A program made the position numbers and the translations under genes. From positions 1 through 22,034 of the IMG/VR virus record IMGVR_UViG_3300030108_000178: a DNA stretch of 22,034 nt; one strand, given 5' to 3'. Source of the DNA: a virus. Every line of letters starts with the position of its first letter. Positions within the stretch are counted from its first letter, which is position 1. This document shows positions 1 to 22,034 of this stretch, piece by piece. The notes under the pieces were generated by a model that was not told the DNA's origin, ran no database searches, and saw only the letters and a program-made list of their open reading frames with translations.

Positions 1-1582
1 CGTAAGGCAACGCTTTGTTGATACCCCACTGCTGCGGCTCCCATAACGGGAATCGACACTTGCGCCCAAGCAAAGTACGGATAGCCCCGCCAGATGCGGG
101 ATGCTCGATTTTTTTCTGAACGGCGTTGATCGTGCCCCGTAAAAACGGGACCTTCTCGTGAAACTCGTTGATCAGCTCAGAAGCTGACTCTAGGTCCATG
201 TCCAACGAGGCGGCTAATTTGGCTTTTCCCATTCCGTACATCAGGCCCAATCCGATTATTTTGGCCTCTTTTCGGCTAACTGCCTCACTCCCCGCCATAT
301 CCGCAACCATTTGATGAAAATCGGTGTCAGGATCGTCGTGATAAGCCTGTACCATTTTGTCAGCACCGTTGAGATTCAACAGGTTGGCATAGTGCAACAG
401 AAGCCTTGGCTCCTGCGAACTGAAATCATTAGCTGCCCACAGCTCCTCCTCTTCAGGAAGAAAAAGCCCTCGGACCATAGGCCCTATGACCGGATGCCTC
501 GCCGGTACTTGCTGGAGATTTGGCTGGGCAAAACTAAGGCGGCCCGTCCGTGTGCCGCCAAAATCTCCCCGTAGCTGATTGATGTGAGAGTGAACACGCC
601 CGTCAGCCTCCGAAAAATCAAGATAGGGCTTGAGAAAAGTGTTGTGGGTCTTGTTGACCTCCCGCGCCTCTACTATTTTGCGCGCTAGATCATGCTCACA
701 TCCTTCCAAAAAACTCTTGGTAAAACTGGGCGCACCTTTGTCGGTTTTTGGGTAGTCCAGACCCACCGCGTCAAAAGCCTTGGAGATGCTTGCCGCCGCC
801 CAAATATCGACGGGCGTGCCAGAGGTCTTGCGAATCTGCTGCACAAGGGCTTTCTCCCGCTTTTGCAGCTCATCAATAAGCTGCTCGGCTTTCGCTCTGT
901 CAAAGCGTATGCCCTTGTAAGTTATGCCCACCAACACAGGCAGCAGATCACGCTCTAGCTCAAAAATGCTTTCAACCTCCTCCTGCCGCAGAAGCACCTG
1001 TAAATGATGCCAAAGCTTCAATGTGAGGGCAGCATCCTGCTCACCGTATTTACCCACGAAATTCGCAGGAAGTTTCCAAAGCTCCTTTTTAGCGTGAATA
1101 TTCCAATCTGCGGCTGCCTGTTTCAAAGCCTCCTCGGACTTCACTTCTTTGAGCATGTCAAATCCAAGGGAGTTCAGCGCATAGCTGAATCGGTTCTCAT
1201 CCACCAAGCCAGCAGCTATCATCGTGTCGATGATCTGCCCCTTAACCTCAAAGCCCGACGCCAAAAGCCACCCAAGATCGTAGGCCGCGTTGTGCATAAC
1301 CTTATCCGATGGCAGTAGCAAGATTTCCTGCACCCACGTCTCAACCATCTTCTTGTCAAGATTGCCGCCGCCTTCGTGTGCAATGGGGTAATACCCGCAC
1401 CACCCGTCCACAGCAACGGCATAGCCGACAATGAAGCCATCTTTTCTTGGCCAGCCGGGTCCGAATTGATCCATGTTTGGATCGCAAGTTTCTAAATCAA
1501 TAGCGATTTCCGTAGCTTCTGATAAGTCAGGAAAACCAGTAGGGGGCAGCCACTCGCTGCTGGGAGGGAACAAATTGCTCAA
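1..1582 (-). CDS. polA: Family A DNA polymerase with 3'-5' exonuclease domain (partial, C-terminus off the window)
   Basis: This is the replicative polymerase of the phage, combining proofreading and polymerisation. I translated it by hand: 527 codons remain open at the left edge. The DEDD exonuclease motifs are all present: D29-L-E31, N98-x3-D102 and Y179-x3-D183. In the palm, motif A is D386-F-S-S-Q-E-P-R, which keeps the metal-binding Asp and the Glu equivalent to E. coli E710. The O-helix motif B has R437, K441, L445 and Y449, so Leu sits where E. coli Pol I has Phe762. Motif C lies beyond the window. No 5'-3' exonuclease domain is present. The start is TTG at 1582, overlapping the TGA of the upstream gene and preceded by AGGAG (1591-1595) at 8 nt; no better start is visible. 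It is the last gene seen in the leftward replication operon. The family call is firm; the exact start is less so. Confidence 0.95.
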   Translation of the reverse strand, partial: MSNLFPPSSEWLPPTGFPDLSEATEIAIDLETCDPNMDQFGPGWPRKDGFIVGYAVAVDGWCGYYPIAHEGGGNLDKKMVETWVQEILLLPSDKVMHNAAYDLGWLLASGFEVKGQIIDTMIAAGLVDENRFSYALNSLGFDMLKEVKSEEALKQAAADWNIHAKKELWKLPANFVGKYGEQDAALTLKLWHHLQVLLRQEEVESIFELERDLLPVLVGITYKGIRFDRAKAEQLIDELQKREKALVQQIRKTSGTPVDIWAAASISKAFDAVGLDYPKTDKGAPSFTKSFLEGCEHDLARKIVEAREVNKTHNTFLKPYLDFSEADGRVHSHINQLRGDFGGTRTGRLSFAQPNLQQVPARHPVIGPMVRGLFLPEEEELWAANDFSSQEPRLLLHYANLLNLNGADKMVQAYHDDPDTDFHQMVADMAGSEAVSRKEAKIIGLGLMYGMGKAKLAASLDMDLESASELINEFHEKVPFLRGTINAVQKKIEHPASGGAIRTLLGRKCRFPLWEPQQWGINKALPY

Positions 1583-2223
1583 AACAAACTCTCCTGAGTC
1601 ATCAACGGTAAAATGTCAAAGCATTCATATCTTTTTGTTTCACCCTTTGGAAAAGGTTGCGGAGAATATTTCAGATACTTTCTTAGACGTTTGTTCCCAA
1701 AATAAATGTAACGATGCTTTAGCTGTGGCGCTCTAGTTTTAATGTTGTTTTCTTTGGCGTATTTGCTTGGTGCGCTTATCCCTCTGTTGGTTAAAACTTT
1801 GGCATGAACCCATTGGTTATCAATCCAATATTCTTTATCGTGAGATTTTGCCGCTCCACAATAAATAAAGTTTGTTGCTTGATATACATAACCAATATGG
1901 CCCATTGCGCCATCAGCGTAACTAACAACAGCCCAATCTTTAAGTTGCCGCAAACTTCTTCCAACAAGGAAAGAAGCCGCATTTTTTGGCGCTCTTTCAT
2001 TGACGCATAGCCTGTTAAGCTCAATGACTTCTTTACGATGCTCTTCGCCTAAGAATCCTCGACCAACCTGTGGAGAGGGAGGCATACCAAAAGTAATAAT
2101 TCCATCTAACTCGTTGCCCACAAATAAGCCAAAGCAAAACATCCTTTGACATTTTCTTTTTGCATAATGTTTCGATAGCAACCACTCATCAGTGACGCTG
2201 CTATCGACTTGTTTTACTCGCAT
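1579..2223 (-). CDS. Mom-like adenine-modification protein (GNAT-type fold family)
   Basis: Phage Mu Mom converts adenine in phage DNA to N6-(methylcarbamoyl)adenine and so protects it from restriction. This 214-residue protein shows the pattern I associate with that family: an N-terminal W-L-L-x-K-H-Y-A-K-R stretch, F-G-L-F, an I-T-F-G-x-P-x-S-P segment, E-L-N-R-L, then S-Y-A-D-x3-G-H-x-G-x-V-Y-Q-A-x-N-F, and near the C-terminus K-H-R-Y-x-Y-F-G followed by P-x-P-K-G. Two starts are possible: TTG at 2232, overlapping the helicase TGA, or ATG at 2223. I prefer the ATG because homologues seem to begin there, but TTG with GAGG upstream is also workable. It lies between helicase and polymerase and is clearly more AT-rich than either, which hints at separate acquisition. 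No com-like regulator is visible. The family call rests on remembered motifs, not a search. Confidence 0.75.
   Translation of the reverse strand: MRVKQVDSSVTDEWLLSKHYAKRKCQRMFCFGLFVGNELDGIITFGMPPSPQVGRGFLGEEHRKEVIELNRLCVNERAPKNAASFLVGRSLRQLKDWAVVSYADGAMGHIGYVYQATNFIYCGAAKSHDKEYWIDNQWVHAKVLTNRGISAPSKYAKENNIKTRAPQLKHRYIYFGNKRLRKYLKYSPQPFPKGETKRYECFDILPLMTQESLF
1591..1595 (-). promoter_or_regulatory. Ribosome binding site supporting the TTG start of the polymerase
   Basis: AGGAG on the minus strand lies 8 nt before TTG at 1582, inside the last codons of the Mom-like gene. It is the reason for accepting a TTG start. Confidence 0.6.
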
Positions 2224-2228
2224 AGAGT

Positions 2229-3725
2229 TCAAAACCTAAATCCTCTTTCTTCTTTCTGGGGTCGCACAATATGCAAACTTTGCCTTGTGCGCGTTACGCC
2301 TACATAAAGCAGACGATTTAAGCTATCGGCATTTCTACTGTATTCTTTTGCAAACTTTGGTGAAAGGTCCGTGAGCAGCAGCACATTGTCAGCCTCCCCT
2401 CCTTTCGCCCCGTGAATCGTGGACAACTGAATAGGGGCTTTGGCACTGAGTTTGGTTCCGCGTCGCAGCACAGCCACAAGATAATCACGCTTGTCCTCGC
2501 CAATCTTGCCTAGCGCCTCGTGCCAGATCGCATCTGTCTCTAGCCCGTAATTCTCCTTTAATTCGTTCATTGAAAACAAACCTTCAGGGTCTGCCTTCTT
2601 CAATCCCCTGTGGCCACGCTTGACCATCCCCACACCCAGATACTTATATATGGGTTTCAGCACGCTAAAATTCACCTCTTGACCAGCCCGTAGCCGTTCC
2701 CAACCAACCACAGCAGTCAAAATAGTGTCCGACACGCTTTTGTGCCCGTGACGCTCGAATAATAATCCTTGGCTCTTGATCCAATGGTGCAGGTCATTGA
2801 GCATATAGTTTGTGCTGGCCATGATGAGCCATTCACCGCTACTTATATCCACCTGCTGATAGTCGTTATAGTAGCTAATCTCGCCGCCTTCCGTGCGGGG
2901 CGCCCATGCTTTGGGCTGCCGCTTCTGGATTCGTTGCACAATCTTGTCCGCAAGAAAGTGGACCTTGGACGGCACTCGATAACTTTGATTGAGTATCTTG
3001 GTCTCTCCCTCGCACCCTAAAAAGCTTTCTACATCAGCCCCCGCCCAGACATATACCGCTTGGTCATCATCGCCTCCGATAATAGTCTTTTCGCTGCGTT
3101 CTGACAAGGACATAACAAGTTTCCACTGAAGTAAACTCAGGTCTTGCGCTTCATCAATGATCAAAGCTCGGAGGGTCGGGAGTCGCTCAGGCTGTTGCAC
3201 AATCTGCTCAAGCAGGTCCGTGAAATCCATCAACATCTTGGCTTCTTTAAATTTACGATAACTTCGCTCAATGTACTCAAAATGGAACCACTCAATGTCC
3301 AAGGCACTCTGATTATAATGCGTATGCAAATCCGTGCCGCGAATACGCGCAATATTGATCTCGTTCATAATCGCGTTGTCTGCTCGGACGACAAACTCCT
3401 CGCCGTCAGTGCTCGTGTTTACCTCTAGCCCCACGCTTTTGGCGAACTCGGCGTAATCCTGTGGAGTCAGCATATCCTTGTTCTCAACCCCTAAACAAAA
3501 GTAGGCGAGGCTGTGCAGTGTCCTGAACCACGGGAAATCTATGTCTGCGCTCAGATGGGGAAACTTCTTGATAGCCCTGTCGCGCGCTTCGTGGGCCGCT
3601 TTTCGCGTAAACGCAAAATAGCCAATGTCCAAGGAGGGAACGTCTTGTTGAAGTTCTTTTTCAACAGCGTCCAATAGATAAGTCGTCTTCCCAGAGCCGG
3701 GTGGACCAAAAACTTTGGTAATCAT
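2229..3725 (-). CDS. UvrD/Rep-like superfamily 1 DNA helicase
   Basis: An ATP-driven DNA-unwinding enzyme of the UvrD/PcrA/Rep type, 498 residues, shorter than the roughly 700 of bacterial UvrD. Walker A is G-P-P-G-S-G-K-T at residues 7-14. Walker B is I-I-D191-E192-A-Q-D. The GDDDQAVYVWAGAD motif follows near residue 220, and the C-terminal RecA-like domain ends with S-T-I-H-G-A-K-G-x-E-A-D and L-Y-V-G-V-T-R-T-R. All core SF1 motifs are therefore present. The start ATG at 3725 overlaps the primase stop (TGATG), so translation is probably coupled. No clear Shine-Dalgarno sequence precedes it. It sits between primase and polymerase, as expected for a replication-fork helicase; a repair or recombination role is also possible. 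Confidence 0.93.
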   Translation of the reverse strand: MITKVFGPPGSGKTTYLLDAVEKELQQDVPSLDIGYFAFTRKAAHEARDRAIKKFPHLSADIDFPWFRTLHSLAYFCLGVENKDMLTPQDYAEFAKSVGLEVNTSTDGEEFVVRADNAIMNEINIARIRGTDLHTHYNQSALDIEWFHFEYIERSYRKFKEAKMLMDFTDLLEQIVQQPERLPTLRALIIDEAQDLSLLQWKLVMSLSERSEKTIIGGDDDQAVYVWAGADVESFLGCEGETKILNQSYRVPSKVHFLADKIVQRIQKRQPKAWAPRTEGGEISYYNDYQQVDISSGEWLIMASTNYMLNDLHHWIKSQGLLFERHGHKSVSDTILTAVVGWERLRAGQEVNFSVLKPIYKYLGVGMVKRGHRGLKKADPEGLFSMNELKENYGLETDAIWHEALGKIGEDKRDYLVAVLRRGTKLSAKAPIQLSTIHGAKGGEADNVLLLTDLSPKFAKEYSRNADSLNRLLYVGVTRTRQSLHIVRPQKEERGFRF

Positions 3726-17598: not shown

Positions 17599-17772
17599 CT
17601 AAATTCCAAACCATGTTCGCCCTGTGCCTTTGTTTTCTGACACATAGGACGTATATGAACCGTTTAATTGAAGCACAATTTGCTCCAAGGACCTTACTAA
17701 CTGATTAAATTGTCGAGCATCGTACTCAGGAGAAGTCGTGTTAGGTAAACGTACATTAGTGATTTTGCTCAT
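17599..17772 (-). CDS. 57-residue phage protein between tail genes
   Basis: I found this by translating the gap between the gp10-like gene and the small beta protein. It begins M-S-K-I-T-N-V-R-L-P-N and ends T-W-F-G-I. The ATG at 17772 overlaps the upstream stop by four bases (ATGA), and the TAG at 17599 is followed directly by the next ATG, so it fits the operon exactly. A helical middle (A-R-Q-F-N-Q-L-V-R-S-L-E-Q-I-V-L-Q-L) has hydrophobic residues at heptad-like spacing and could form a coiled coil. No function is recognised; a small tail or head-completion component is possible. Confidence 0.8.
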   Translation of the reverse strand: MSKITNVRLPNTTSPEYDARQFNQLVRSLEQIVLQLNGSYTSYVSENKGTGRTWFGI

Positions 17773-19637
17773 CTTATCCCATCCGGTTGAATATCTACAC
17801 GCAACGTGCCGTATCGCCAGTCGGTATCAAGGGCGCTACTGGTTATTTTAAGGGAAATCTGCCGTCCTCTCGCTCTTGTGTCTATCTTTTGTGTTGTTGG
17901 GGACACAGTATAAGGGTCCAGTGAACTGTTTGTTGCAGCTGACTGAGGATAGGCCCTAAGAAACAGGTTTACTGTTAAGTCGCCCTGTTGGTCTTTAAAA
18001 TCGGGGATAAAACGTTTCATGTACATCATGTTATCCCCATCTCCTATGTCAAAATAACCTGACGTAATAAACGCCGAGATGGGTTGACCGTTGGCATTTA
18101 TGCCTTTTTCCTGCTCATACACTTGAGCGCGTCCGGCTGTTAAGCCATAAATAGTGCTGATCGTAGACTCTGTGCCTGTAGAATCGTATTCAGTGGCTAA
18201 AGGATTATCATAAGCCCCGTAATCTTGCCAAGCGGTTCTTGATAACGTCCCTATTGACCAAACGTTTTCCACATAGTTATACGTCACACAACGATCAACA
18301 TAGTCACTGCTTGATGAACAGTAAAACCATGTTACCTCGTTAAATTGACTATTTAATCCTGCATACACCTTATTTCGTTGTATGAGGTTTATATCTTCAA
18401 ACACATAATCCTGCACCGTAGAGGGCAATTTTTTAACTGTGCCGTCAAATAGATAGAAGGCTTCTATACCCATCCAAAAGGCTATTCCATTCACGTCTAT
18501 CGCTGCATGAGGTCCTGAACACCCACAGTTAGCCCCTAATTGTGTAAAGCCAAACGTGTAGGGAGGACCTATATATTGCATACCATGCAGTGAAGTGTCC
18601 GTGATAATAAGCAATTGCCCACGAGAACGGATTGCTGTGACTATTTCGTTACCATCAGTAAGTCTTTGACCCCCAGCGGTATTAGTGGCGCTTTCAGCAA
18701 ACGTGTTAATGTCTTCTTGATCGGAGAATCTCACAAACATAGGGTCTTGAGACGCAGGATCGCCTATAGTGGTCTCCGTGCCTAATAACACTAAATGTCT
18801 GTCTGGAGAGCTGACCAAAGCATATTTACTTTTTGTAGGTGCTCCTGTTACTTGTGTTGCTCTTGTAGTTGTTCCGGCTGAAAGGTCCCAACGAAAAGTT
18901 TTACCATCCTGTAGTTGACAAATAACATCTTCACCAAAAAGGTCAAGTTGCCATACCCGTGCAGCTAAACTAATTCCTGTTACGCCTGAGCGCGGAGTTC
19001 CCCACGTAGAAGCTCCCCATGTTCCAGTGCCCCATCCAAAATCAAAATAACTGAAATCTGATCCTGTGTTTATCTGATAAGCGCCTACAACAGAGGACCC
19101 CCCATTACCTGTATCAGAGGCGTCTGCTGCTATTGAAGCTGTAATCGTATAAGTGTCTACCGTAAGAACTTCTGTAACCTCATATTCAGCGTTCAATAAA
19201 GCGGCTGTAATGTTTCCTCCCAAGCTCACTGCGCCTGAGTACGTTACAAAATCACCTGCTAGTGCGCCGTGAGCTGTGTCTGTTACTGTAATAACCGCAG
19301 AGCCATTAGATGCGGAAAAAGTGACATCCCCCGCTGCTGTTGTTTCCCTTATTGGAGTAACATCGAACCATGCTCCTCCTGTGCTTACATACAACTTCTT
19401 ATGAGTGCCTACCATGGCATACGGCACACCTGTCAAACTTGTCCACGTAATTATATCTGAGGGTCGGCCAACAAGATAAATGTTTGAAAAATCTCCAAAC
19501 TCCTGCCATCCTCCTATTTTTTCGGGAAGTCCAAAACGAAAACGCACGTTGTCACAATCCGTCCAGCCGCCTTCCGCACCATACTCAGTGTTTTGTTTAT
19601 CAATTCCTGCTGCTAGTGCTAATCGAAAATAAGCCAT
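17769..19637 (-). CDS. Tail protein resembling P22 gp10 / T7 gp12 (nozzle or DNA-stabilisation protein)
   Basis: This 622-residue protein is mainly beta. It begins with G-W-T-D-C-D-N-V-R-F-R-F-G-L-P-E-K-I-G-G-W and contains repeated blade-like units: V-W-Q-L-D-L-F-G-E-D-V-I-C-Q, L-L-I-I-T-D-T-S-L-H-G-M-Q-Y, I-A-F-W-M-G-I-E-A-F-Y-L-F-D-G and Y-N-Y-V-E-N-V-W-S. The phrases near L-F-G-E-D and the following G-K-T-F-R-W-D are typical of the packaged-DNA-stabilisation or tail-tube proteins of short-tailed phages, which form a beta-propeller plug under the portal. A Ser/Thr/Val-rich insertion at about residues 100-180 could be an extra beta domain. The start ATG at 19637 overlaps the lysozyme stop by one base (TAATG). 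The family call comes from remembered motifs. Confidence 0.72.
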   Translation of the reverse strand: MAYFRLALAAGIDKQNTEYGAEGGWTDCDNVRFRFGLPEKIGGWQEFGDFSNIYLVGRPSDIITWTSLTGVPYAMVGTHKKLYVSTGGAWFDVTPIRETTAAGDVTFSASNGSAVITVTDTAHGALAGDFVTYSGAVSLGGNITAALLNAEYEVTEVLTVDTYTITASIAADASDTGNGGSSVVGAYQINTGSDFSYFDFGWGTGTWGASTWGTPRSGVTGISLAARVWQLDLFGEDVICQLQDGKTFRWDLSAGTTTRATQVTGAPTKSKYALVSSPDRHLVLLGTETTIGDPASQDPMFVRFSDQEDINTFAESATNTAGGQRLTDGNEIVTAIRSRGQLLIITDTSLHGMQYIGPPYTFGFTQLGANCGCSGPHAAIDVNGIAFWMGIEAFYLFDGTVKKLPSTVQDYVFEDINLIQRNKVYAGLNSQFNEVTWFYCSSSSDYVDRCVTYNYVENVWSIGTLSRTAWQDYGAYDNPLATEYDSTGTESTISTIYGLTAGRAQVYEQEKGINANGQPISAFITSGYFDIGDGDNMMYMKRFIPDFKDQQGDLTVNLFLRAYPQSAATNSSLDPYTVSPTTQKIDTRARGRQISLKITSSALDTDWRYGTLRVDIQPDGIR

Positions 19638-20065
19638 TAGTCCAGATACTCGTTTGTTTTTATTTGGTCAGTAAGCTCTAAAGCCCTGCCCTTCACTTGA
19701 CGCGCCCATAGGCTATCAAGAAATTCGGCGGCTGCGCCATCCCAATCGTTGTTCTCTAAACAAGCAATTGACTTTTGAAACTTAGAAAATGTAGTTTGTC
19801 CTAAGTTAAAGTGAATATTAACAATAGCGTCTTTTCTTGGTCCATCAGGCATTTGCTTAAACCACGCATAATGAGAAAGTTCTTCTATTGTTCTATTTAT
19901 GTCGTTATTTAGTAAATATTCTATTTCTTCTTCTGAAAGACCCAAGCCGTTTTTAGAGATGTTCCTGCCGCAAGCAATGTGCTCAAGGCCGTGCATGTCT
20001 AAGTAGACGTGAGATTTAACCCCTTCATGGCGTTTAAGTTGTTCAATTAGCTTACTTTTTTGCAC
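19637..20065 (-). CDS. GH24 phage lysozyme (T4-like endolysin) with His at the catalytic Thr position
   Basis: This enzyme cleaves the glycan chains of peptidoglycan at lysis. From GTG at 20065 it has 142 residues. Catalytic Glu is E14 (K-R-H-E-G-V-K) and Asp is D23 (Y-L-D-M-H-G), with the same spacing as T4 lysozyme E11 and D20. Where T4 has Thr26 there is His29 (L-E-H-I-A-C-G-R-N-I). Further family signs are L-S-E-E-E-I-E-Y-L-L, N-I-H-F-N-L-G and the C-terminal W-A-R-Q-V-K-G-R-A. No signal or SAR helix is present, so release should depend on the holin. GGAGG five bases before the GTG decides the start; the ATG at 20077 has no binding site and would add four residues. It overlaps the holin gene by 14 bases. 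Confidence 0.92.
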   Translation of the reverse strand: MQKSKLIEQLKRHEGVKSHVYLDMHGLEHIACGRNISKNGLGLSEEEIEYLLNNDINRTIEELSHYAWFKQMPDGPRKDAIVNIHFNLGQTTFSKFQKSIACLENNDWDGAAAEFLDSLWARQVKGRALELTDQIKTNEYLD

Positions 20066-20522
20066 TTGAGCCTCCATAATAGAACGCCGCTGCCGTACCT
20101 AAAATTCCTGATAGCTGGCCTAATACCAAACTTATAATCGTTTCATCGCTTTGATCATGCGGCATCAGGGTCACGATCATAACAAAAGCGCCATACAGCA
20201 GAAGTGTCAGCACTGTAAAGACTTTTGGGGTCCAGTCCGTTGCAAAGTTAGCTCGTGCATCTTTCCGGTCATCCACTTCAGTTTTAAACGACTCTAAATC
20301 AATTTCCATTTCTCGGATACGGTCTTTAAAGTCATTGTCTGCTTCCTTGAGAAGCACTGCCTTTTCGGGTTGCTTCTCAATTAAATCCTCTATTTCATTA
20401 GCCGTAGCATCTGGCACACCTAACTTCTGTGCAGCCATCTTGACAGCCATTCCGGCCATTGGCCCTCCTGCTGCCGAGGCAATCGTAGGGGCTAGGCTTT
20501 TGAGTAGTCCACCTAATTTCAT
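20052..20522 (-). CDS. Holin of the 3TM / gene-transfer-agent-release type
   Basis: The holin forms inner-membrane holes that set the time of lysis and release the lysozyme. The 156-residue protein has a weakly hydrophobic Gly/Ala N-terminus (A-P-T-I-A-S-A-A-G-G-P-M-A-G-M-A, about 11-30), a charged middle with D-D-R-K-D-A-R-A, and two clear membrane segments at about 100-120 and 128-150. It ends in the short basic S-S-A-K-K. The order charged helix, D-W-x-P-K, TM, TM fits the 3TM holin family. The start ATG at 20522 has no Shine-Dalgarno sequence that I can find; just upstream is a small hairpin, CACTT-ATTA-AAGTG. Weak translation would be one way to delay lysis. Confidence 0.82.
   Translation of the reverse strand: MKLGGLLKSLAPTIASAAGGPMAGMAVKMAAQKLGVPDATANEIEDLIEKQPEKAVLLKEADNDFKDRIREMEIDLESFKTEVDDRKDARANFATDWTPKVFTVLTLLLYGAFVMIVTLMPHDQSDETIISLVLGQLSGILGTAAAFYYGGSSAKK
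20071..20075 (-). promoter_or_regulatory. Ribosome binding site favouring a GTG start for the lysozyme
   Basis: GGAGG on the minus strand lies five bases before GTG at 20065 and inside the holin reading frame. It overlaps the alternative ATG at 20077, which therefore cannot use it. Confidence 0.55.
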
Positions 20523-20565
20523 TGTAGTAACAAATACACTTTAATAAGTGCCTCTAGTTCGTTAA

Positions 20566-20775
20566 TTACTTTCCCTCGGTGCTTTCCTCCGTGATGGTAT
20601 CTATAGTATCGCACACATCAGGAACCCGTATTCCAGTGGTCACTTCAGTAGTTACACGGCCTACAGCACGTATGCCCTTGTAGACACCGGAGCAGTATAG
20701 TTGTTTATTAGCGATCATTTCTTCCGAAACTGTGCAGCCAGTTATCAATAAACACAACGCAAAAACTCTAAGCAT
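20566..20775 (-). CDS. Small lipoprotein of the lysis cassette, candidate outer spanin
   Basis: The protein has 69 residues from ATG at 20775, which has GAGG six bases upstream and overlaps the lipase stop by 8 bases (ATGCTTAG); an earlier start at 20790 is less likely. It has a short signal peptide (M-L-R-V-F-A-L-C-L-L) and a lipobox I-T-G-C with the lipidated Cys at residue 14. The mature part is about 56 residues with two more Cys (Y-C-S and V-C-D), and it is not Pro-rich, unlike lambda Rz1. With Thr at +2 it should go to the outer membrane. Outer-membrane lipoproteins in holin-lysozyme cassettes usually act as o-spanins, but no matching inner-membrane partner with an N-terminal anchor is seen here. 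Confidence 0.75.
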   Translation of the reverse strand: MLRVFALCLLITGCTVSEEMIANKQLYCSGVYKGIRAVGRVTTEVTTGIRVPDVCDTIDTITEESTEGK

Positions 20776-21511
20776 TTTCCACCTCATCAAGCATTTTATT
20801 AAGATCCTTTATGTCTTCTTCACTTGGCGCACTGTTTTGAGCGTCTAAAAAACGTTCAAGGCGTTCTTTATACCCTTCCATAAAATGGTCCGACACTGCG
20901 TCCTTGATGCTTCTGTCCTCTTTTCTAGTTTGTTTAGAAGGATCAATTAGGTCTTGTCCATTGTTAGCAAAGTACAACATTTTCTGAGATACAGAAGGCC
21001 CGTAGCAAAGACGGGGTATGCGTGCCACCATGTCCGAACCTTGCACACAAGAAATTTGGTTATCAAGCGTGGTCATTGCTCGTTTGAAACCTTTAAAAAA
21101 AGTATTAGGTTTGCCAAAAGTAATAATGTTTAAGTTGTCGTGTTTTTTCCACAATTTAGCTGCACTTAACTCTGCTAATGCTCCACCAAGACTATGCCCA
21201 CAAATTAAAGTGCGCTTTTTCATATCAACGTGTTTAAGTATCTTTTTCCAAATAGAGGCGTGTTGAGCAACAAAACCGCCATGACAAAGCCTCCCTGCAT
21301 AAGGCACGGGTATGACAGCTAGGTCCGTAAGAATATCTAGTTTTTCCTGCGTCCCACGAAAAGCTATAATATCCACGGTTTCTCTTTTTGCTACATAAGC
21401 CGTTGCAGATGTCCACTTACTTTCAATTTTTATAGCGTCTTCTACAAAATCCCTATAAGCCTTCATACTCCAAGAACACGCCATGTTAAGCAGTACAGGG
21501 TCTAGTTTCAT
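20768..21511 (-). CDS. Class 3 lipase (alpha/beta hydrolase)
   Basis: A 247-residue enzyme predicted to hydrolyse acyl-glycerols or phospholipids. It shows the class 3 lipase layout: F-R-G-T at 51-54 near the oxyanion region, the nucleophile elbow G-H-S107-L-G-G-A, the catalytic Asp in G-S-D160-M-V-A-R-I-P-R, and His209 in S-D-H-F-M-E-G-Y. The C-terminal 35 residues are acidic and helical. No signal peptide is visible, so it would stay in the cytoplasm unless it leaves through the holin. The start ATG at 21511 overlaps the previous stop by one base (TAATG), and its end overlaps the lipoprotein start. It lies in the lysis cassette, which suggests a role in membrane breakdown; a role in lipid supply or in the virion is also possible. 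Confidence 0.9.
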   Translation of the reverse strand: MKLDPVLLNMACSWSMKAYRDFVEDAIKIESKWTSATAYVAKRETVDIIAFRGTQEKLDILTDLAVIPVPYAGRLCHGGFVAQHASIWKKILKHVDMKKRTLICGHSLGGALAELSAAKLWKKHDNLNIITFGKPNTFFKGFKRAMTTLDNQISCVQGSDMVARIPRLCYGPSVSQKMLYFANNGQDLIDPSKQTRKEDRSIKDAVSDHFMEGYKERLERFLDAQNSAPSEEDIKDLNKMLDEVENA

Positions 21512-21999
21512 TATTCAGCTCCAATCCCAAAAATTAAAAATACCGCACCGAAAATAAAAATAACTGTACCTACAAGCCATGCAAACATTACGGCTAGGTC
21601 ACGTACCAAAGCATCTTCTGCTTTTTCTGCGGCAGCTTTTTGTTTCCTTTTAACTTCGCGTTTCTTCTCTATTTTAACCGCTTCTTTCTTTATCTTTACC
21701 CATCTATGGGTCTGCCCCTTGCGAGAGTAATAATCTCCCACTTTCTTCATCATTCGCTCAATACGCTCTTCTTGCTGGTCTATCGTAATGGCTTCTTCAA
21801 GCGCAGAACCTACCATCAAATCATCAGTACCAGCCTGACGAGCTTTCTGTATATGCTCCTCAACTTTCTTCTTGGCAGTGAAGAAACGGCCTACTTCTCC
21901 AGCCATGTCCTCGACTTCTTTTTTCTTGGCAATAGCCGACTGTACAACAACAAACGCAGAGTCTAAGGCTTTTATTGCGAGTAACGCTTCACCGATCAT
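21511..21999 (-). CDS. Unknown protein with C-terminal membrane anchor
   Basis: No function is recognised. It has 162 residues from ATG at 21999, which has AGGTGG five bases upstream; a GTG at 22008 would overlap that site. It is helical and rich in Lys and Glu. About residues 103-131 form a highly charged helix (V-K-I-K-K-E-A-V-K-I-E-K-K-R-E-V-K-R-K), followed by one hydrophobic segment at about 136-158 (F-A-W-L-V-G-T-V-I-F-I-F-G-A-V-F-L-I-F-G) and a two-residue end. It therefore looks tail-anchored with most of the protein in the cytoplasm, the reverse of a lambda Rz spanin. Proteins of this shape recur before lysis genes in marine phages. An ATGA overlap links it to the gene upstream. Confidence 0.8.
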   Translation of the reverse strand: MIGEALLAIKALDSAFVVVQSAIAKKKEVEDMAGEVGRFFTAKKKVEEHIQKARQAGTDDLMVGSALEEAITIDQQEERIERMMKKVGDYYSRKGQTHRWVKIKKEAVKIEKKREVKRKQKAAAEKAEDALVRDLAVMFAWLVGTVIFIFGAVFLIFGIGAE

Positions 22000-22034
22000 T
22001 TGTACCACCTGCTGTCTTCATCTGCATTTATTGG
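21996..22034 (-). CDS. C-terminal end of an upstream gene (partial)
   Basis: The last 12 codons and stop of an open frame entering from the right edge read P-I-N-A-D-E-D-S-R-W-Y-K then TGA at 21996-21998. The stop overlaps the next ATG as ATGA, the same coupling used elsewhere in this operon, which is the main support. Too little is present to name a product. Confidence 0.4.
   Translation of the reverse strand, partial: PINADEDSRWYK

What the first reader, a model, noticed from the sequence alone, without database searches (positions are those of the whole stretch)
19637..21999. Lysis cassette that includes a class 3 lipase next to a lipoprotein, holin and lysozyme
Seen: tail-anchored protein, lipase, lipoprotein, holin and lysozyme are consecutive; only the lipoprotein-holin pair is separated, by 43 bases, and the rest overlap by 1 to 26 bases depending on start choice. 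The lipase has a complete Ser-Asp-His set. Known: Gram-negative phages normally break the outer membrane with spanins; here there is no protein with the N-terminal anchor and periplasmic coiled coil of an inner spanin. Inference: the lipase, released through the holin, may help open the outer membrane, alone or with the lipoprotein, as an alternative to a two-part spanin.
Basis: partly seen in the sequence, partly recalled or inferred. Interest (0 to 1): 0.62.

Follow-up and report, generated by a model that had tools for sequence, protein, structure and literature searches.

The report
Marine phage lysis cassette with lipase
A large group of uncultured, mostly marine bacterial viruses carries a fat-splitting enzyme and a partner lipoprotein inside the gene cluster that bursts the host cell, which suggests these viruses may attack the outer membrane with an enzyme instead of, or as well as, the usual physical membrane-disrupting proteins.

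Summary
On the minus strand, window 19637-22008, five genes run consecutively: tail-anchored protein, class 3 lipase, 74-aa lipoprotein, 2-3TM holin-like protein, phage lysozyme. The cassette is widespread: among 175 distinct IMG/VR or MAG loci, the lipoprotein gene is the lipase's direct downstream neighbour in 171 of 174 evaluable cases; the holin family follows in 144/153 and the lysozyme family in 124/153. The Ser-Asp-His triad is invariant. Neither lipase nor lipoprotein matches any INPHARED record at the limits used. The nearest named relative, DSL-LC04, has the same local order without the lipase-lipoprotein pair. However, 50 of 106 evaluable relatives carry small N-terminally anchored membrane proteins near the lipase (23 with a long coiled coil of i-spanin architecture) and keep the lipase, so 'replacement for a spanin' is not established. 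Best reading: a dedicated lipase plus outer-membrane-lipoprotein pair that attacks envelope lipids once the holin triggers. Substrate, timing and outer-membrane action are inferred. A GDSL lipase beside holin and endolysin in Pseudomonas phages (PMC12173070) is a published precedent.

The parts
21511..22008 (-). Tail-anchored coiled-coil protein, 165 aa (GTG; alternative ATG at 21999), single TM at residues ~138-160, 5-residue C-tail; positive residues before the TM imply N-in
   Evidence: upstream neighbour of the lipase in 62 of 175 loci, variable in the others; related protein before the holin in DSL-LC04
20768..21511 (-). Class 3 (fungal-type) lipase, 247 aa, no signal peptide or TM; catalytic S107 (GHSLGG), D160, H209
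   Evidence: PF01764 63 bits, PHROG 21992 esterase/lipase, invariant triad, AF2 model pLDDT 73 with best PDB matches to A. niger feruloyl esterase A and fungal lipases
20566..20790 (-). Short lipoprotein, 74 aa, lipobox LITG-C19, mature part ~55 aa with two near-invariant Cys (C33, C60); predicted outer-membrane sorting (no Asp at +2)
   Evidence: direct downstream neighbour of the lipase in 171 of 174 loci
20052..20522 (-). Holin-like membrane protein, 156 aa, two strong C-terminal TM segments and a weakly hydrophobic N-terminus
   Evidence: PHROG 1544, weak similarity to the PF11351 holin of DSL-LC04, family found in 144 of 153 cassettes
19637..20077 (-). Phage lysozyme (endolysin), 146 aa, no signal or SAR segment
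   Evidence: PF00959 39.1 bits, PHROG 7 endolysin; maximum hydropathy 0.15
17769..19637 (-). Flanking virion stabilization protein, 622 aa, marks the position of the cassette at the edge of the tail module; not itself a lysis gene
   Evidence: PHROG 3287, 69% identity to DSL-LC04

Best explanation
A late lysis cassette whose third, envelope-lipid step is carried out by a lipase and a dedicated outer-membrane lipoprotein. Steps: (1) the five proteins are made late from one minus-strand gene string (gene order and overlaps shown; co-transcription inferred). (2) The lipoprotein is exported, lipidated at C19 and sorted to the periplasmic face of the outer membrane (signal shown; localisation inferred). 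(3) Lipase and lysozyme, which both lack any export signal, collect in the cytoplasm (shown from sequence) until the holin opens the inner membrane (inferred). (4) The lysozyme cuts peptidoglycan; the lipase, recruited or activated at the outer membrane by the lipoprotein, hydrolyses acyl esters of inner-leaflet phospholipid or LPS and weakens the outer membrane so that virions escape (inferred). It would work like LysB of mycobacteriophages, an esterase in the lysis cassette acting after endolysin, but it is not a member of that family.
For: Lipase and lipoprotein form an almost inseparable pair (171/174 loci, lipase identity down to 41%), followed by holin (144/153) and lysozyme (124/153). 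The string lipase-lipoprotein-holin-lysozyme keeps together in different genomic places: beside tail fibre and stabilization genes (window, L013), behind DNA polymerase (L188), and in DSL-LC04-like 62-kb as well as ~34-37-kb genomes. The lipase is replaced by a 41-43% relative with the lipoprotein retained (L122). The holin slot is taken by a different small membrane protein (DUF6127) in L050, L051 and L121 while lipase, lipoprotein and lysozyme stay. DSL-LC04, syntenic with the window, lacks exactly this pair between tail-anchored protein and holin. Catalytic triad invariant and dN/dS low, so an active enzyme is selected. No i-spanin-like gene in a complete relative or in the window's own record. 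Precedents for esterase or lipase in lysis: LysB, whose deletion leaves phage trapped in debris (PMC5707550), and a GDSL lipase beside holin and endolysin in Pseudomonas Nickievirus phages with active-site-dependent antibacterial synergy (PMC12173070).
Against: No experiment; substrate unknown, and the closest solved folds are feruloyl esterase and triacylglycerol lipases, with phospholipase A1 only weakly. Some relatives carry i-spanin-like proteins as well, so the outer membrane may be opened by a spanin there. In L138, L139, L141 and L143 the lipoprotein, holin and lysozyme stand together without a lipase upstream, though these contigs are incomplete. L187 has a lipase with no lipoprotein or lysis genes nearby. 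The host, and hence a Gram-negative envelope, is not proven for the window.
Confidence: 0.5

Rival explanations
1. Spanin-first: the lipoprotein is an o-spanin-like subunit that works with a membrane coiled-coil protein of the cassette (the ~181-aa N-anchored protein where present, or an unconventional partner such as the tail-anchored protein in the window lineage). The lipase only helps, e.g. by clearing membrane debris or vesicles so that virions do not re-adsorb.
For: The ~181-aa protein has inner-spanin architecture and sits upstream of the lipase in 23 of 106 loci; it and the tail-anchored protein never occur together (0 of 106), as if they fill one slot. The lipoprotein is short with two Cys, like some o-spanins (the Brenneria phage o-spanin also has them), and one relative has a weak hit to an Rz-like spanin PHROG (E 0.06). 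Kongari et al. allow spanins of other topology (PMC6139136).
Against: The tail-anchored protein has the wrong predicted topology (positive residues before a C-terminal TM, 5-residue tail). The mature lipoprotein of ~55 aa is far from spanning a periplasm alone. The ~75-aa N-anchored protein has a relative in a Brenneria phage beside holin and endolysin with a separate Rz/Rz1-like pair, so it is not the i-spanin. The pair is kept where no N-anchored protein exists (46 of 106 loci have the tail-anchored protein only, 10 neither).
Confidence: 0.22
2. Auxiliary lipid metabolism: the lipase acts in the cytoplasm or on the inner membrane before lysis, recycling host phospholipid or easing membrane rupture, and merely shares the late operon.
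For: No export signal. Distant class 3 lipases occur outside lysis clusters, e.g. P-SSM2 between a tRNA ligase gene and T4-GC hypotheticals, and in L187.
Against: Near-invariant coupling to an exported lipoprotein and to holin/lysozyme, including when the cassette moves to another genomic place. A lipase free to attack the inner membrane before holin triggering would be expected to spoil lysis timing (inference).
Confidence: 0.17
3. Virion-borne lipase: the enzyme is packaged or attached to the tail and acts at entry.
For: The cassette lies between tail-fibre-like genes and the virion stabilization protein.
Against: The cassette also lies beside DNA polymerase in 9 loci; the partner is an exported lipoprotein; no structural domain is fused to the lipase.
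Confidence: 0.06
4. The lipoprotein is an inhibitor or immunity-like partner that protects the envelope from leaked lipase until lysis, as periplasmic lipoproteins do for type VI lipase effectors; the lipase is still the lysis enzyme.
For: Tight pairing with overlapping genes. The analogy to Tle/Tli pairs is from memory and was not tested.
Against: A cytoplasmic lipase without a signal would not need a periplasmic inhibitor before holin triggering. The lipoprotein occurs without a nearby lipase in four incomplete contigs.
Confidence: 0.05

Closest known systems
GDSL lipase of Pseudomonas Nickievirus phages (PMC12173070)
   Same: Lipase gene beside holin and endolysin in a Gram-negative phage, proposed lysis cassette; active-site-dependent antibacterial effect and esterase activity shown on an engineered fusion
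   Different: GDSL hydrolase with an N-terminal helix and a carbohydrate-binding domain, not class 3 lipase; no conserved lipoprotein partner reported in the text read; different phages
Mycobacteriophage LysB (PMC5707550)
   Same: Serine esterase encoded in the lysis cassette, released after the holin, acting on the outer lipid layer as a third lysis step
   Different: Mycolyl-arabinogalactan esterase of mycobacteria; substrate absent in Gram-negative hosts; no lipoprotein partner; sequence relation not tested here
Two-component spanins Rz/Rz1 (PMC6139136)
   Same: A small outer-membrane-type lipoprotein in the lysis cassette
   Different: No type II inner-membrane partner with periplasmic coiled coil in the window lineage; enzyme present instead
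Phage DSL-LC04 (OR003939)
   Same: Syntenic genome: stabilization protein, endolysin, 3TM holin, tail-anchored protein, tail fibre; helicases 65-73% and stabilization protein 69% identical
   Different: Lacks lipase and lipoprotein; endolysin is an M15 peptidase
Class 3 lipase of Prochlorococcus phage P-SSM2
   Same: Distant class 3 lipase relative in a marine phage (about 32% to the divergent L122 lipase)
   Different: Not in a lysis cassette; no lipoprotein recognised next to it

Membership tests
Class 3 lipase (Pfam PF01764) | Profile score above the curated cut-off | tested here: met
   63 bits against 22
Class 3 lipase (Pfam PF01764) | GxSxG nucleophile elbow with Ser-Asp-His triad | tested here: met
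   S107 172/172, D160 174/174, H209 174/174; fungal-lipase fold in the AF2 model, moderate confidence
Two-component spanin (Rz/Rz1 type) | Outer-membrane lipoprotein (lipobox, no Asp at +2) | tested here: met
Two-component spanin (Rz/Rz1 type) | Adjacent, overlapping or embedded type II inner-membrane protein with periplasmic coiled coil | tested here: not met
   None in the window or the 3.4 kb upstream, nor in the complete 61,976-bp relative; an i-spanin-like protein is present in other relatives
Unimolecular spanin | Lipobox plus C-terminal TM in one chain | tested here: not met
   The 74-aa lipoprotein has one hydrophobic segment, the signal
LysB (mycolyl-arabinogalactan esterase) | Esterase activity on mycolyl-arabinogalactan | not testable with these tools
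   Sequence scans put the lipase in Lipase_3 and PHROG 21992
GDSL lipase lysis protein of Nickievirus | GDSL hydrolase family and carbohydrate-binding domain | tested here: not met
   The only Pfam hit is Lipase_3; 247 aa without a further domain
GTA_holin_3TM (PF11351) | Profile score above cut-off in the window protein | tested here: not met
   No hit at E up to 1; the DSL-LC04 counterpart does meet it (30.4 against 24.8) and is weakly similar
Phage lysozyme (PF00959) | Profile score above cut-off | tested here: met
   39.1 bits against 22.3
Type VI lipase effector with lipoprotein immunity (Tle/Tli) | Lipoprotein binds and inhibits the lipase | not testable with these tools
   Only the gene pairing is similar

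The most novel reading that the evidence does not exclude
A third class of outer-membrane disruption in Gram-negative phage lysis, beside spanins and disruptins: an enzymatic lipase working with a dedicated outer-membrane lipoprotein, widespread in uncultured marine phages.
Probability: 0.33. Interest if true: 0.8.

Novelty: new variant of a known kind. Interest (0 to 1): 0.57.

Why it matters
About 13% of the genomes surveyed by Kongari et al. (PMC6139136) had no recognisable spanin, 20 of the 91 from marine cyanobacterial hosts, and the paper leaves their route through the outer membrane open. A conserved lipase-lipoprotein pair in spanin-poor marine phages offers a directly testable answer and a natural source of outer-membrane-active enzymes. 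A review (PMC10975011) states that the role of phage lipases has yet to be elucidated.

Tried and rejected
Lipase and lipoprotein tblastn against INPHARED: nothing. The ~75-aa N-anchored protein upstream of the lipase (59 loci) was considered as the missing i-spanin and set aside, because its relative in Brenneria phage BREN6 stands beside holin and endolysin with a separate Rz/Rz1-like pair. The tail-anchored protein as i-spanin: set aside on charge and topology. An i-spanin embedded in another frame around the lipoprotein: no candidate ORF in the window. DSL-LC04 as a control expected to have a spanin: it has no lipoprotein gene, so it does not show that the pair replaced a spanin. AF2 model of the lipoprotein: low confidence (pLDDT 67, pTM 0.34), not used. 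Literature searches for a class 3 lipase in phage lysis found none, apart from the GDSL precedent. My greedy gene calls missed some holins that overlap long lysozyme ORFs; counts were redone with profiles on all ORFs. Hydropathy, not a trained predictor, was used for TM segments and lipoboxes, so weak signals may be missed; the scan of the complete relatives was restricted to non-overlapping gene calls for type II proteins. The 175 loci come from scans seeded with this lipase family, and only the best 80 per scan were kept, so the pairing rate applies to this family, not to all phage lipases.
Full report
WHAT IS THERE. The window is bases 1-22034 of a 25,488-base virus record. The lipase passes the Pfam cut-off for Lipase_3 (63 bits against 22) and the lysozyme that for Phage_lysozyme (39.1 against 22.3). 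The lipoprotein has a signal ending LITG-C, and its mature part of about 55 residues holds two further cysteines. The holin is a reasonable but indirect call: two strong TM segments, PHROG 1544 of unknown function, weak similarity to the PF11351 holin at the same place in DSL-LC04. Neither lipase nor lysozyme has a signal or TM segment, so both depend on the holin to reach the periplasm.

HOW WIDESPREAD. One scan of IMG/VR found 276 contigs encoding close relatives of the lipase, a second, profile-based scan 457. Neither lipase nor lipoprotein matched any of 50,697 INPHARED records at E limits of 1e-3 and 1. After pooling five scans and removing duplicates, 175 distinct loci remained; 171 of the 174 where it can be judged have the lipoprotein gene directly after the lipase, usually with an overlap of 4-26 bases. 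In a fourth (L236) it lies elsewhere on the same contig; L208 is a 4-kb fragment; L187 lacks it in a 29-kb record. The holin family follows in 144 of 153 and the lysozyme family in 124 of 153 loci with enough sequence. Over these loci lipase identity to the window falls to 41%, yet the triad never varies, and the lipoprotein residue after the lipidated Cys is never Asp, the inner-membrane retention signal of E. coli (the meaning of Asp+2 is established knowledge). Close pairs show strong purifying selection on the lipase.

MODULARITY. What stands upstream of the lipase varies: tail-anchored protein (62), a ~75-aa N-anchored protein (59), a ~181-aa N-anchored coiled-coil protein (15), DNA polymerase (9). 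The downstream string moves as a block: beside the stabilization protein in the window and L013, behind DNA polymerase in L188, next to a terminase in L192; in L240 the lipase-lipoprotein pair sits beside head-tail adaptor and tape-measure genes. It occurs in ~60-62-kb genomes and in ~34-37-kb genomes. The lipase can be exchanged for a 41-43% relative with the lipoprotein kept (L122) and the holin for a DUF6127 protein (L050, L051, L121). Relative to the syntenic DSL-LC04, the window has gained, or DSL-LC04 has lost, precisely lipase plus lipoprotein between tail-anchored protein and holin, and the endolysin differs. These are the marks of one functional unit for lysis with the lipase-lipoprotein pair as a sub-unit.

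SPANIN QUESTION. G004 (61,976 bp) has an exact 77-bp terminal repeat and is circularly permuted relative to its relative G005, so it is complete. Its only convincing short membrane proteins are holin, lipoprotein and tail-anchored protein. G005 and G011 have near-exact end repeats and likewise no cassette-linked type II protein; G005 has one 61-aa type II protein about 24 kb away on the other strand. But 50 of 106 evaluable loci have an N-anchored membrane protein near the lipase, 23 of them the ~181-aa protein with inner-spanin architecture. The lipase is therefore not exclusive with i-spanin-like genes. The ~75-aa protein is probably not an i-spanin, since its relative in Brenneria phage BREN6 accompanies a separate Rz/Rz1-like pair. 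DSL-LC04 itself has no lipoprotein gene.

STRUCTURE. The AF2 model of the lipase is of moderate confidence (pLDDT 73, pTM 0.74). Best solved matches are A. niger feruloyl esterase A and fungal triacylglycerol lipases, with plant phospholipase A1 weaker; profile search against PDB sequences gives the same families. The fold does not tell the substrate.

MECHANISM. I take the lipase-lipoprotein pair as the outer-membrane step: lipoprotein exported early to the outer membrane, lipase and lysozyme released by the holin, lipase recruited or activated at the outer membrane to cut acyl esters. Gene organisation, signals and active site are shown; release, recruitment, substrate and consequence are inferred. 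Overall confidence 0.5. The main rival is that the lipoprotein is part of an unrecognised spanin and the lipase an accessory (0.22).

PRIOR KNOWLEDGE. Kongari et al. found no spanin in 91 of 677 genomes and ask whether there is another route through the outer membrane (PMC6139136). LysB is the clearest functional analogue (PMC5707550). Warring et al. report a GDSL lipase upstream of holin and endolysin in a Pseudomonas phage and suggest a lysis cassette (PMC12173070). A review notes that phage lipases are rare and of unknown role (PMC10975011). I found no description of a class 3 lipase or a lipase-lipoprotein pair in a lysis cassette in the papers searchable here. Hence 'new variant of a known kind'.

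Noticed in passing
window 1579-2232 (-): 217-aa protein of the Mom family (PF25680, 157 bits), a phage DNA-modification protein, lying between DNA polymerase and the UvrD-like helicase; DSL-LC04 has no gene at this place.
   Followed up: partly
window 22031-22034 and L002 5032-5035: Short scaffold gap (four N) at the upstream edge, inside a small N-terminally hydrophobic, Cys-containing gene that is intact in L013 5322-5516 and precedes the tail-anchored gene in 73 loci.
   Followed up: partly
106 relative loci: The tail-anchored coiled-coil protein and the ~181-aa N-anchored coiled-coil protein never occur together (0 of 106), as if they fill the same slot with opposite topology; shared ancestry was not excluded as the cause.
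   Followed up: partly
L077 3400-4305, L081 7012-7917, L129 1344-2240 and others: A ~300-aa protein with no Pfam match is inserted between lipoprotein and holin in about 10 loci.
   Followed up: no
L006 6970-8193 and about 20 relatives: In one sub-lineage the gene after the holin is a 407-aa protein without family match instead of the lysozyme; the endolysin of these phages was not located.
   Followed up: no
L157 / L158 (NYWC01000113.1, Gammaproteobacteria MAG CPC27): The 49.6-kb MAG contig repeats itself with a period of 34,295 bases (99.95% over 8.7 kb): a circular phage genome assembled past its end, not two lipase copies.
   Followed up: yes
L208 71-352: A different lipoprotein-like gene with two Cys overlaps the start of a divergent lipase that lacks the usual lipoprotein.
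   Followed up: no
L138, L139, L141, L143: Lipoprotein-holin-lysozyme cassette beside a portal-like gene without lipase upstream; the contigs are incomplete, so the lipase may lie elsewhere.
   Followed up: partly
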